From Pyrinomonadaceae bacterium (GTDB lineage: Bacteria > Acidobacteriota > Blastocatellia > Pyrinomonadales > Pyrinomonadaceae), in contig JANQRU010000004.1 in NCBI GenBank assembly GCA_028284415.1, positions 1-64,000 on the forward strand: a stretch of DNA of 64,000 nt, given 5' to 3'. The notes under the pieces are model-generated. The model worked only from the letters and a program-made list of their open reading frames with translations. It had not been told where the DNA came from and did no database searches. A program made the position numbers and the translations under genes. Shown piece after piece: positions 1,644 to 5,326 of this stretch (position 1 is the first letter of the stretch; every line of letters starts with the position of its first letter).

Positions 1644-3008
1644 TTAGTTTGGCATATATTCAACAGGCTTAGCTTTATCTATAAAAAAGAAAGCATCTAT
1701 AATATTTGACCAACTTGCTTTATTCTCAAGTTTTCCTAAGGCTACTGATATAAACTTTCCTCTTAACCAATGCTTATCATTAACACTTCTTAGGTTCACA
1801 AAAAGATATGGATTATTTAACTTATGAGCTATCGCCTCAAAGCTATTTTCTGGAGGAGACTTTAGCTTCTTAACTTGAGAACTTATTTTTGAGTCTTTTG
1901 GGAAGACTTCGCCACTCTCCCCTTCATAAGATGTAAAAGCTATCGTATAAAGGTCTTTGCCCAATTCAGGATATATCTTGTGTCCCATATGATGTGAAGT
2001 CTTATACCAACCCTCGTTTTTTATATTTTCTATCGAATCACCGTTTCGAATCAAATGAGCAGTGGCTGCCCAAATAATTATTTTTCTATTCGGATAAAGA
2101 TTTTTCATTGACCAAAGAAATGTATCTGCCATGAATTTATCTCTGGCAATGTTCCAGGCTTCACCACCTTTGGTTTTTAAAATGTGCCTTAATTCCTCTG
2201 AAACTAATGAATCGTAAATAAATCTATCCGCAAGTTTTAACTCTTTTTTTGAAAAAGTTTTGAGCAACTTATCATGATTTGTTTTTATAATTTTTGTAAG
2301 AGTTTCTAAAACTTGTCTTTCAGAAACTCTTACATCTTCTGCAACTTTTTTATTTGAAATGAATCCATACCCTCTGCTTTGTAGGCTTTTTATCCTCTTC
2401 CAGTCTTCTTCATTTATTGAGAGTAAAGAATTTCTCTTTCCTAAGTCTTCAAAAAACTTTTTAAAGAATCTCGCTGAAGCATGAGGTTTTCCGGCATCAA
2501 AACCTGACATCTCCAAAGGTCTGTCAGTTTTCCATGAAGCACGAATGTATTCAAACAAATTATTGGTTTGTTTCTCATTAGCCCATCCGCCCAGCATTAA
2601 ATTATACTTAGCTCGTTTCAGAGGAATATCTGCATCCCGCAAAGCAGAATTCATGGCTAATGTTTGGAATAAACCAGATTCCCAGGCTAAAACGTCAAAC
2701 CCCATTTCTTTATGTAAAAAACGAACCATTCGAGATTTAGCCGCACTGGTAGAACCTTCAGAATGCGTCGCCTCTCCAAGAACTACAACCTTTGCCTTAC
2801 CTATTTTTTTAACTAATGGCTTTAGATCTGAGAAATCATCATCAATTGGATTAATAGAACTTATGGGAATTGCATATTTCTCCAGCGACTTAGCATCTGA
2901 TAAACCTTTTTCTACATTCGTATCTGATTGAGCATAAATGAAACTAATGCATAAGGTAATTATTAATAATGCAAAATAACTTCTGATGAAAAAATAGTGT
3001 TTACTCAT
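1644..3008 (-). CDS. exported erythromycin-esterase-family protein
   Basis: 454 residues with a signal peptide (hydrophobic residues ~8-26, cleavage near IYAQS). The mature part has the Ere/succinoglycan-esterase signature: VVVLGEATHSEG near residue 75, then a helical body with LAWESG and MSGFDAG, and WAATAHLIRNG near 325, matching the conserved glutamate and histidines of the family's hydrolase-like active site. Characterised Ere enzymes open macrolide lactones, but most environmental members have unknown substrates, so resistance should not be assumed. It lies downstream of the PqqD-like gene on the same strand (gap 57 nt), possibly co-transcribed. No defect seen. Confidence 0.85.
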   Translation of the reverse strand: MSKHYFFIRSYFALLIITLCISFIYAQSDTNVEKGLSDAKSLEKYAIPISSINPIDDDFSDLKPLVKKIGKAKVVVLGEATHSEGSTSAAKSRMVRFLHKEMGFDVLAWESGLFQTLAMNSALRDADIPLKRAKYNLMLGGWANEKQTNNLFEYIRASWKTDRPLEMSGFDAGKPHASARFFKKFFEDLGKRNSLLSINEEDWKRIKSLQSRGYGFISNKKVAEDVRVSERQVLETLTKIIKTNHDKLLKTFSKKELKLADRFIYDSLVSEELRHILKTKGGEAWNIARDKFMADTFLWSMKNLYPNRKIIIWAATAHLIRNGDSIENIKNEGWYKTSHHMGHKIYPELGKDLYTIAFTSYEGESGEVFPKDSKISSQVKKLKSPPENSFEAIAHKLNNPYLFVNLRSVNDKHWLRGKFISVALGKLENKASWSNIIDAFFFIDKAKPVEYMPN

Positions 3009-3644: not shown

Positions 3645-4011
3645 TCTGCTCCCTAATGTATCTTGAATAAACACAGTTATTTCCAAGCAAACAATATTCC
3701 TTTTATCACTTTATAAATAAGGAAATGTCTCAGAATAAAAATGAGATAAAGTTTTAATCAAATTTAGTAAATCGCTTATCAGAATTTCGTTTTGTATAAG
3801 TTTAGTGAACAACCGCAAATCAAATATTACAAAATTCCGTTATTGCTTTAGTCATAAAAAAAGATTTCATCTATATTTAATTTAGTTAATGAAAAATTCA
3901 TAAAGACTGAAAACTTTAAATCCAATCTTTCGTTAAATTCTTTATTCATTCGTAGGCTTTGAGTATAATGAGGAAAGTAGATTGTTTCTTTACCTTGAGT
4001 GATTTTCATCC
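3645..4011. other. gene-less AT-rich region
   Basis: Roughly 370 bases between the PqqD-like gene and the terminator at 4012. The part next to 3645 must contain the leader and promoter of the PqqD-like gene (minus strand). No other ORF, RNA or repeat could be supported. Confidence 0.5.
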
Positions 4012-4061
4012 AAAATAAAAAGTTTCTGAAGTATTAAAATTACTTAGAAACTTTTTATTTT
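4012..4061 (-). terminator. intrinsic terminator downstream of the split tRNA gene
   Basis: A perfect 16-bp inverted repeat, AAAATAAAAAGTTTCT (4012-4027) and AGAAACTTTTTATTTT (4046-4061), with an 18-nt loop and a T-run on either strand, so it can act in both directions. It lies 33 nt past the tRNA 3' end and fits as the tRNA transcript terminator. Confidence 0.8.
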
Positions 4062-4134
4062 AGGTTATATTTAATTATTACTTACTTTTGTTGATGCCCT
4101 CGGGAGGATTCGAACCTCCAACCAACAGATTATG

Positions 4135-4742
4135 CTTACCAACTACGCTTTTCAACGCCCTTTTCAAGTTTGTGGTCTGGACTTTCTCTTCTCTTTACGA
4201 GTCTGCTGTCAAGTCTCTACACATTCCGATAAAAATTATCGGCTTTGCTCGGGATTACCGTATTTTCTTAAAATAAAAACTTAGGCTTCCCCGAATTTAA
4301 CAGATTCTACTAAAATGCTTTTAATAGCAAATTAGCAACCCATTTCTTTCAAAAACCTTATGAATAAAAAATGTGTTATATGCAAAAAGCTTCTTAAAGG
4401 CAGACAAAGAAAATTTTGCTCTGCCAAATGTAAAAACGCGGATACAAATAACAAACATCAAAACTACGTTGCACAACAACGCAGGGGTTATAAACGCAAA
4501 GCCAAGTTGCTAGTATTGAAAGGTGGTAAATGTGAAATATGCAATTATAACAAGAACACAGCTGCTCTTTGTTTTCATCACATAAACCCCAAAACCAAAG
4601 CTTTTCAAATAGACATTAGGCATTGTTCTAATACTTCTTGGGACAATCTGCTGAAAGAAGTTAAAAAGTGTCAACTTCTTTGTCTTAATTGTCATGCCGA
4701 AGTTCATAACCCAAGTTTTTTCACTTAGATTTTCTGTTTTTG
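4135..4742 (-). mobile_element. group I intron inserted between U33 and C34 of tRNA(CAU)
   Basis: The 608-nt insert follows an exon U and ends in G (GGTAAG), as group I introns do. The core reads on the minus strand. P element at 4298-4280 (AAATTCGGGGAAGCC), Q at 4256-4241 (AATCCCGAGCAAAGCC), R at 4220-4205 (GTAGAGACTTGACAGC), S at 4190-4176 (AAGAGAAAGTCCAGA). P3 CUGUUAA/UUGACAG, P4 UUCGGG/CCCGAG, P6a CCGAUAA/UUAUCGG and P7 GACUU/AAGUC all pair. A guide sequence AUGGGUU (4343-4337) pairs GACU of the 5' exon, with a U.G at the splice site, and CAU of the 3' exon (P10); a P2 hairpin follows at 4336-4309. R and S resemble cyanobacterial tRNA-Leu introns (subgroup IC3 by resemblance). The P1 loop carries an ORF on the other strand. 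Confidence 0.92.
4360..4728 (+). CDS. HNH homing endonuclease, antisense to its host intron
   Basis: 122 residues. The N-terminal zinc finger is CVICKK...KFCSAKCK (residues ~4-25). A basic linker (QQRRGYKRKAK) follows, then the HNH nuclease core: CEIC near residue 66, FHHINP near 79-84 and CLNCHAEVHN near 108-117, giving the catalytic His and zinc-binding Cys/His set. It fills nearly all of the P1 loop of the tRNA group I intron but is encoded on the strand opposite to the tRNA, with 14 nt between its stop and the 5' splice site and 16 nt between its ATG and the guide sequence. No good ribosome binding site precedes ATG 4360. A weak TTGCTC-N18-TAAAAT at 4245-4274 could drive it. The ORF is intact. 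Its role is inferred as copying the intron into empty tRNA genes. Confidence 0.85.
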   Translation: MNKKCVICKKLLKGRQRKFCSAKCKNADTNNKHQNYVAQQRRGYKRKAKLLVLKGGKCEICNYNKNTAALCFHHINPKTKAFQIDIRHCSNTSWDNLLKEVKKCQLLCLNCHAEVHNPSFFT

Positions 4743-4787
4743 AGTCTGCTGCTCTAACCGTTGAGCTACAAGGGCAAAAACTATAAT

Positions 4788-4837: not shown

Positions 4838-5326
4838 TTAAATCATTTGTTTGGCTAAATTAAGAAAAGCTTCCTCAACCCGTTCGCCTGTCTTTGCACT
4901 TGTTTTGAAAGTCTTTTCACTACTAGCAATAGTTCGAATTTCGGTATTCTCTATCTCAAAATCTTCGATTAGGTCGTTTTTGTTAAAGAGGATCAGATGC
5001 GGAACTTCACCGACTTCTCTTTCAATCATTTTTTGAATAGAAAATCCTGTAACGAGAGTTTCATGGCGGGTTAAATCAACAACTAATAAGTAACCTGATG
5101 CTCCTTTCAAGAATGATGGTCGGATTTTGAAATCTTCATCTTCGCCTTGCAGATCCCAAAGCATCAGTATTACATCATTTTCCTCGACAGAGATCACTTT
5201 TTTATCAATTTTTACACCGATGGTTGAGTGGTATTTTTCTGAAAAAATGCTTTGGACAAATTGCCTTACAAGACTGGTTTTACCAACCCCGGTCGCTCCA
5301 AGCATACATATTTTTTTCTGAATCAT
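4838..5326 (-). CDS. Ras/Rab-like small GTPase (prokaryotic Rup-type)
   Basis: 162 residues with the full small-GTPase motif set: G1 GATGVGKTS (residues ~9-17), a switch I threonine in STIGV, G3 DLQGE (~59), G4 NKND (~115) and G5 TSAKTG (~142). Eukaryotic-like Ras-superfamily proteins occur widely in bacteria, where most are uncharacterised; MglA is the best known relative. The gene is the last of a four-gene unit, only 2 nt after the OmpA-like gene, so it probably works with that membrane protein as a switch. There is no C-terminal Cys box for lipidation, so any membrane recruitment would be through a partner. No MglB/roadblock partner was seen nearby. Confidence 0.88.
   Translation of the reverse strand: MIQKKICMLGATGVGKTSLVRQFVQSIFSEKYHSTIGVKIDKKVISVEENDVILMLWDLQGEDEDFKIRPSFLKGASGYLLVVDLTRHETLVTGFSIQKMIEREVGEVPHLILFNKNDLIEDFEIENTEIRTIASSEKTFKTSAKTGERVEEAFLNLAKQMI

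What the first reader, a model, noticed from the sequence alone, without database searches (positions are those of the whole stretch)
4095..4775. tRNA(CAU) gene interrupted by a group I intron with a fully readable core
Both exons pair into a complete cloverleaf only if a 608-nt insert between U33 and C34 is removed. The insert ends in G after an exon U, has P, Q, R and S elements, pairing P3, P4, P6a and P7, a P2 hairpin and a guide sequence AUGGGUU that pairs GACU (P1) and CAU (P10) with the expected U.G. Known bacterial tRNA group I introns lie in tRNA-Leu, tRNA-Arg, tRNA-Ile and tRNA-fMet; I do not recall one in an acidobacterial elongator Met or Ile2 tRNA at this site. Splicing is needed for any functional tRNA from this locus.
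Basis: partly seen in the sequence, partly recalled or inferred. Interest (0 to 1): 0.88.

Follow-up and report, generated by a model that had tools for sequence, protein, structure and literature searches.

The report
Homing intron inside tRNA-Ile2 anticodon loop
The only copy found in this genome of a tRNA gene predicted to read AUA codons is split by a 608-base group I intron that is predicted to splice itself out and that holds, on its opposite strand, a gene for a likely DNA-cutting enzyme of the kind that spreads introns; relatives of this intron sit at the same place in tRNA genes of contigs classed as phage, so phages would be likely carriers.

Summary
In detail: on the minus strand a tRNA(CAU) gene (exons 4775-4743, 4134-4095) is interrupted between U33 and C34 by a 608-nt group I intron. 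Rfam's model hits it below its cut-off (41.5 bits, cut-off 50), but 22 relatives show strong covariation (95% of cells paired, 29 of 55 pairs with double changes). The tRNA is most likely Ile2, not Met. Among 145 related genomes 25 have this gene split and 71 intact, none both; no intact copy was found in the window's genome. Related introns have intact, broken or lost HNH genes, beside empty sites, as in a homing cycle. Introns of the same lineage lie at U33|C34 in tRNA-fMet and in tRNA(CAU) genes of viral contigs, five with the antisense HNH; stand-alone viral HNHs favour intact tRNA(CAU) neighbours. Splicing and cleavage are untested. New variant of a known kind: a tRNA group I intron with an antisense homing gene, shared by Acidobacteriota and predicted phages.

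The parts
4743..4775 (-). tRNA-Ile2(CAU) 5' exon, nucleotides 1-33
   Evidence: cloverleaf only after joining; U33 at 4743
4135..4742 (-). 608-nt group I intron, ends in G at 4135
4095..4134 (-). tRNA-Ile2(CAU) 3' exon, starts with anticodon C34 A35 U36
4360..4728 (+). HNH endonuclease gene, 122 aa, antisense to the intron, inside the P1 loop
   Evidence: (phrog_2255 HNH endonuclease 5.2e-22)
4736..4742 (-). P1 extension, 5' strand CAAAAAC
   Evidence: read; not covered by the covariation test
4350..4356 (-). P1 extension, 3' strand GUUUUUG
   Evidence: read; not covered by the covariation test
4337..4343 (-). internal guide sequence AUGGGUU: GGUU pairs GACU of the 5' exon (P1), AUG pairs CAU of the 3' exon (P10)
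4309..4336 (-). P2 hairpin
   Evidence: helix 1, 7 of 9 pairs with double changes
4299..4304 (-). P3, 5' strand
   Evidence: helix 2, 5 of 6 pairs with double changes
4202..4207 (-). P3, 3' strand
   Evidence: helix 2
4249..4294 (-). P4-P5 (P4 UCGGG 4294-4290 with CCCGA 4253-4249)
   Evidence: helices 3-5; P4 itself never varies
4221..4248 (-). P6-P6a
   Evidence: helices 6-7
4211..4215 (-). P7, 5' strand GACUU
   Evidence: helix 8; last pair U-A, A-U or G-C, the other four never vary
4180..4184 (-). P7, 3' strand AAGUC
   Evidence: helix 8
4838..5326 (-). Ras-like small GTPase gene upstream of the tRNA; same neighbour at the empty site in G005

Best explanation
A group I intron lies between U33 and C34 of a tRNA predicted to be Ile2(CAU), is predicted to splice itself out of the precursor, and likely spreads by means of the predicted HNH endonuclease gene that it carries on its opposite strand. 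Splicing (inferred from structure): exon GACU pairs with the guide sequence GGUU, an external guanosine cuts after U33, and U33 then attacks after the last G of the intron, which joins U33 to C34 and makes the CAU loop that TilS would turn into the AUA-reading form. Because no intact copy was found in the genome, splicing would be needed to read AUA. Mobility (inferred): the HNH, made from an antisense transcript, would cut intron-free CAU tRNA genes in the anticodon region, and repair from the split copy would insert the intron. The HNH gene is broken or gone in several relatives, as expected once no targets are left. The target is likely the CUCAUAA loop common to CAU tRNAs, since the same intron lineage also sits in tRNA-fMet and in tRNA(CAU) genes of viral contigs; phages would carry it between bacteria.
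For: Structure: 95.4% of cells paired and 29 of 55 pairs with double changes over 22 introns; 0 of 500 shuffles reach either; slides 33-41% paired. Need for splicing: 25 of 145 genomes split, 71 intact, overlap 0 where 12.2 are expected by chance, p 4.5e-9, relatedness not corrected for. Empty site at the same locus in the same genus, behind the same GTPase gene. HNH: 80 proteins found, the window's own included; PHROGs HNH 5.2e-22; 122 codons in 14 of 14 copies measured, median dN/dS 0.12 (15 of 91 pairs usable), third positions most variable. States of the 25 split genes: 13 intact HNH, 1 broken, 9 without, 2 with a sense ORF instead (LAGLIDADG by Pfam in G033; G041 by eye). Core tree: the 36 CAU-site introns in it fall in one starred clade of 38 rows, and the window's intron groups with 8 other bacterial Ile2 introns and 5 viral ones (96/83). 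Viral tRNA(CAU) genes with the same insertion in 18 contigs, several near-copies, 5 with the antisense HNH inside. Stand-alone viral HNHs: nearest tRNA is CAU in 17 of 35 against 16 of 248.
Against: No RNA or cleavage data. RF00028 is below its cut-off. P10 is weak outside C34-G. No promoter-like site lies upstream of the HNH on its strand, and the promoter scan is at chance. The HNH's target is inferred from position alone; no solved structure is close by sequence or fold. The window's HNH gave no Pfam match at 0.001. Viral contigs are predictions of IMG/VR, only six were checked for phage genes and L317 gave no clear one; neither GenBank phages nor plasmids hold a DNA match to the core. The core tree has long branches and open forks. 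The genome is 94% complete, so an unseen intact Ile2 gene is possible.
Confidence: 0.8

Rival explanations
1. Splicing intron without present mobility: the ribozyme works, but the HNH is only a passenger or a remnant, and the intron is inherited vertically.
For: 9 of 25 split genes have no HNH and one has a broken one.
Against: HNH with 122 codons in 14 of 14 copies measured and median dN/dS 0.12; patchy presence inside one genus (G000, G001, G004 split; G002, G003, G005, G006 intact); core tree mixes bacterial and viral introns.
Confidence: 0.13
2. Decayed locus: the tRNA is a pseudogene split by a dead intron, and AUA is read by another tRNA.
For: RF00028 score under the cut-off; genome not complete; a tRNA array on contig C4 holds other CAU tRNAs.
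Against: Core, P1 and exons conserved with compensatory changes; no intact Ile2 gene found by family scan or by patterns; tilS kept.
Confidence: 0.04
3. The HNH serves an unrelated role (for example in competition between phages) and its place in the intron is a safe harbour.
For: 48 of 52 distinct viral HNHs are not in a resolved intron, and 35 of 65 distinct viral loci have a tRNA within 60 nt; a phage tRNA-array endonuclease, SegB, helps phages escape defence (PMC13096335, passages).
Against: Nearest tRNA within 60 nt is CAU in 17 of 35 against 16 of 248 other tRNAs of those loci (p 2e-9), in all 17 on the opposite strand, which points to the CAU gene as target.
Confidence: 0.08

Closest known systems
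Cyanobacterial tRNA-fMet group I intron with I-Ssp6803I (PDB 2OST; that 2OST is I-Ssp6803I is recalled)
   Same: Group I intron in a CAU tRNA with a homing endonuclease gene; a relative of the 2OST protein is encoded in an acidobacterial tRNA-fMet intron at U33|C34 (L346).
   Different: Ile2 instead of fMet; HNH instead of PD-(D/E)XK; antisense instead of sense. The cyanobacterial insertion point was not checked.
Azoarcus sp. BH72 pre-tRNA-Ile group I intron (IC3)
   Same: Group I intron in a bacterial tRNA-Ile gene (PMC3984707, passages); its CAU anticodon is recalled.
   Different: Recalled, not checked: no endonuclease gene, and insertion after rather than before the anticodon.
Didymium squamulosum L2066 rDNA intron with I-DsqI (PMC9548176, passages)
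   Same: Homing endonuclease gene antisense to a group I intron, reported there as expressed and active.
   Different: Eukaryotic rDNA, His-Cys enzyme, gene in P9.2; here bacterial tRNA, HNH, gene in the P1 loop.
SegB of T-even phages (PMC13096335, passages)
   Same: Free-standing homing endonuclease in phage tRNA arrays with cuts inside tRNA genes, like the place of the stand-alone viral relatives here.
   Different: GIY-YIG family (recalled), not HNH; not in introns.

Membership tests
Group I intron | Conserved core P3-P4-P6-P7 with pseudoknot | tested here: met
   P3, P4, P6, P7 97-100% paired; P3 and the last P7 pair with double changes; P4 never varies
Group I intron | Covariance-model match to RF00028 | tested here: inconclusive
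   41.5 bits, E 5.5e-9, gathering score 50
Group I intron | U.G at the 5' splice site from a guide sequence; terminal G | tested here: met
   guide GGGUUGC in 23 of 24 distinct introns, not found in L256; the terminal G was required by the search pattern, so its constancy is no test outside the window
Group I intron | GTP-dependent self-splicing | not testable with these tools
   needs RNA work
Subgroup IC3 | Subgroup-specific core and peripheral elements | not tested
   likeness to cyanobacterial tRNA-Leu introns is recalled
tRNA-Ile2(CAU) | Cloverleaf with CAU and Ile2-like body | tested here: met
   the five best E. coli records listed match at tRNA-Ile; two fetched have CAU
tRNA-Ile2(CAU) | Lysidine at C34 by TilS | not testable with these tools
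   tilS gene present, 181.6 bits
HNH endonuclease | HNH domain | tested here: met
   phrog_2255 5.2e-22; Pfam gave no hit for the window's protein at 0.001; at 0.1, 14 of 35 relatives match AI2M-like_HNH and 11 match HNH
Homing endonuclease | Cuts the intron-free site near the insertion point | not testable with these tools
   only position and distribution
Homing endonuclease | Mobile distribution: empty sites among close relatives, decay states | tested here: met

The most novel reading that the evidence does not exclude
One intron lineage specialised on the CUCAUAA anticodon loop of all CAU tRNAs moves between phage tRNA arrays and bacterial chromosomes; a free-standing antisense HNH gene beside a phage tRNA(CAU) is the form from which the intron repeatedly took up its homing gene, and phages are the vectors that brought it to Acidobacteriota.
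Probability: 0.45. Interest if true: 0.82.

Novelty: new variant of a known kind. Interest (0 to 1): 0.7.

Why it matters
It gives a bacterial tRNA gene in which the stages of a homing cycle (empty site, full intron, broken gene, lost gene) can be compared among close relatives, an antisense homing gene in a bacterial intron, and group I introns in tRNA genes of viral contigs, where a 2014 review stated that all phage introns known lay in protein genes (PMC3984707, section 11 read). The same review saw little evidence for horizontal movement of bacterial introns; the lineage shared by bacteria and predicted phages makes that testable. It would also place a likely essential step, making the AUA-reading tRNA, under a ribozyme. 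A tRNA finder run without an intron option misses this gene.

Tried and rejected
Elongator Met: set aside in favour of Ile2. HNH swap in G004: the large tree put its HNH outside the starred clade of the other Blastocatellia HNHs, but a test on 26 chosen rows did not reject one clade (p-AU 0.384), so no swap is claimed. A botulinum-complex chain at E 0.047 in the PDB profile search is taken as chance and was not followed. The fold search gave no match at E 0.001 or better; the best are Cap5, Endonuclease VII and other HNH folds at E 0.17 or worse. Core against GenBank phages and plasmids: no DNA match. Promoter and terminator scan: at chance.

Capped or partial: the HNH loci L091-L170 are the best 80 of 404 and L171-L249 the best 80 (79 distinct) of 286; 35 of 80 proteins were aligned; 40 of the 159 loci L091-L249 were scanned with Rfam; 65 of 79 viral loci, near-copies left out, went to the model search; 20 proteins of six viral contigs were tested against PHROGs, 13 with a match. 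Rows dropped: L254 and L271 (chance pattern hits), L257 (5' exon not found); L250 and L256 left out of the structure alignment (long insertions); L306, L318, L222 and L171 unresolved among viral loci; identical HNH rows and those under 85 residues, then those under 100 bits (108 of 128 kept); 76 of 91 HNH pairs with dS of 2.5 or more or not usable. Among nine HNH-free introns L336 shows no HNH scar, against the deletion reading.

Full report
What is there. On the minus strand of the window, 4775-4743 holds nucleotides 1-33 of a tRNA and 4134-4095 the rest; between them lie 608 nt (4742-4135). ARAGORN finds no tRNA in the window but a full cloverleaf with CAU in the joined exons. Rfam's group I model matches 4346-4162(-) with 41.5 bits and E 5.5e-9, under its gathering score of 50.

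Which tRNA. The intron-free ortholog in the same genus (G005) matches the spliced window tRNA at 71 of 73 positions. The five best E. coli records listed for it match at a gene annotated tRNA-Ile, and the two fetched have anticodon CAU. The genome has tilS (181.6 bits). So it is most likely tRNA-Ile2, whose C34 is changed to lysidine to read AUA (general knowledge). Another CAU tRNA (C2:288689, L028) is the likely elongator Met; two further CAU tRNAs lie in a tRNA array on contig C4.

No intact copy. An intact-gene pattern (TCATAATCYGTYGGYT) matches 71 of 145 related genomes, the window's not among them; the split-gene pattern (GCATAATCYGTYGGYT) matches 25 of 145. Of those 25, 22 resolve into full split genes, two (L254 in G029, L271 in G069) are chance matches outside tRNAs, and in one (L257, G041) the 5' exon was not found. 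The model search added G031 and G129, so 25 genomes carry the split gene. None of the 25 is among the 71 (12.2 expected if independent, p 4.5e-9; relatedness not corrected for); the other 49 match neither pattern or only by chance. In the window's genus G000, G001 and G004 are split and G002, G003, G005 and G006 intact. In G005 the intact gene follows the same Ras-like GTPase gene as in the window.

The ribozyme. 22 introns were aligned from the guide sequence to the 3' exon. RNAalifold found P2, P3, P4, P5, P6, P6a, P8 and a P9 hairpin unaided, with 26 of 50 pairs showing double changes; it cannot draw the P7 pseudoknot. The named structure with P7 and P9.0 has 95.4% of cells paired, 29 of 55 pairs with double changes, and no shuffle of 500 as high; slid versions pair 33-41%. 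In P7 four of five pairs never vary and the fifth is U-A, A-U or G-C. The rows were cut out by the guide motif GGGUUGC, which is in 23 of 24 distinct introns; P10 beyond C34-G is not conserved. The core resembles IC3 introns (recalled, not tested).

The missed gene. On the + strand, 4360-4728 encodes 122 aa, HNH endonuclease by PHROGs (5.2e-22); AlphaFold2 gives mean pLDDT 90.5. It lies in the P1 loop, between the 7-nt strands CAAAAAC and GUUUUUG, antisense to the ribozyme. In the 15 introns that keep all or part of it, the end of the gene is 13-17 nt from the 5' splice site and the guide 398-402 nt in. Across 14 intact copies the frame has 122 codons, median dN/dS is 0.12 (15 usable of 91 pairs) and third positions differ most (0.56 against 0.28 and 0.21).

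A homing cycle. Of the 25 split genes, 13 have an intact HNH, 1 a broken one (G122), 9 none (G001, G007, G012, G021, G030, G031, G073, G097, G129) and 2 a sense ORF instead, a LAGLIDADG_2 in G033 (1.1e-19) and by eye a like one in G041. Eight of the nine HNH-free introns keep a CTA(A/C)(G/A)TG stretch that in the full form is the end of the HNH gene, and six keep the CAT of its start, which suggests loss by deletion; L336 (G129) keeps neither, and these stretches flank the P1 stem, so conservation for the RNA is not excluded.

The phage link. In viral contigs, 8 of 65 loci given match the intron model, and a pattern scan gave 15 contigs. One search resolved 13 of those 15 and six of the eight (one contig shared by both sets): 18 contigs in all, several of them near-copies, with a CAU tRNA split at U33|C34, one of them like tRNA-fMet (L317). 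Five (L173/L310, L197, L198, L204, L219) carry the antisense HNH in the intron. Of 20 proteins from six of these contigs 13 match phage families, among them clamp loader (L310), RNA ligase (L305, L307) and a weak tail fibre (L198); L317 gave no clear one. Other viral relatives of the HNH stand alone; of 65 distinct loci 35 have a tRNA within 60 nt, and the nearest is CAU in 17 of 35 against 16 of 248 other tRNAs of those loci (p 2e-9; near-copies may remain), in 17 of 17 on the opposite strand. Where it lies beyond the HNH stop, 5-13 nt separate them.

Trees. The 36 CAU-site introns in the core tree fall in one starred clade (99/99) of 38 rows; the other two, L088 and L089, are in tRNAs not resolved as CAU. 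tRNA-Asn, Gln and Arg introns lie outside. The window's intron falls with 8 other bacterial Ile2 introns and 5 viral ones (96/83) rather than with the other 13 bacterial ones; six viral introns lie elsewhere in the clade (long branches warned of). HNHs of 14 intron loci of Acidobacteriota and one contig-end copy fall with 13 viral HNHs in a 96/96 clade (28 rows; few columns). Whether the acidobacterial HNHs have one origin is open (p-AU 0.384). The labels of viral intron HNHs need at least three changes on that tree.

Other hosts of the HNH, among the best 80 of 404 genome loci: in Gammaproteobacteria it stands divergently beside split tRNA-Gln(CUG) or Arg(CCG) genes, in Bacteroidota sense inside tRNA-Gln(CUG) introns, in candidate-phyla and a few other bacteria sense inside tRNA-Asn and Thr introns, in one Peregrinibacterium antisense in a tRNA-Ile2-like gene (isotypes by ARAGORN, whose intron option mislabels some, the window's own as Leu). 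tRNA-fMet is split at the same U33|C34 in G093, G108, G129 and G131; in G131 (L346) the intron encodes a relative of the PD-(D/E)XK protein of PDB 2ost (2.8e-62).

Literature. No paper of the held library has both Blastocatell* and group I intron; the seven with acidobacteri* and group I intron are, by title and abstract start, on other matters. Searches for antisense homing genes and for phage tRNA introns showed no bacterial or phage tRNA case by title and abstract start. Most subscription papers are not held, so absence from print is not shown.

Host name. Introns identical to those of members of its family occur in records named Acidobacteria and Pyrinomonadaceae, and one HNH relative is from a record named Blastocatellia; that Pyrinomonadaceae belong to Blastocatellia is recalled. 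So 'Blastocatellia' here is an inference.

Noticed in passing
L032 (G000 contig C4:139000-154500): About 24 tRNAs in some 13 kb, several of odd sequence, phage-like; no HNH relative found in this stretch.
   Followed up: partly
G000, whole genome: No host-type tRNA-fMet was found by one pattern, only an fMet-like tRNA in the C4 array; missing from the assembly or divergent.
   Followed up: partly
[quoted passage not shown] by ARAGORN's labels many lie in tRNA-Asn, others in Thr, Tyr, Lys and fMet genes.
   Followed up: partly
L346:1300-1827: tRNA-fMet intron with a sense PD-(D/E)XK endonuclease related to PDB 2ost.
   Followed up: yes
L256:711-1421: Ile2 intron with a sense LAGLIDADG_2 gene that runs into the ribozyme core.
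   Followed up: yes
Gammaproteobacterial loci among L102-L157: HNH relatives stand divergently, mostly 66-120 nt from split tRNA-Gln(CUG) or Arg(CCG) genes.
   Followed up: partly
window 4005-4067: A+T-rich hairpin downstream of the tRNA, possibly its terminator (seen as weak miRNA-model hits).
   Followed up: no
window 1644-3008: Erythromycin esterase-like protein (PF05139, 4e-28).
   Followed up: no
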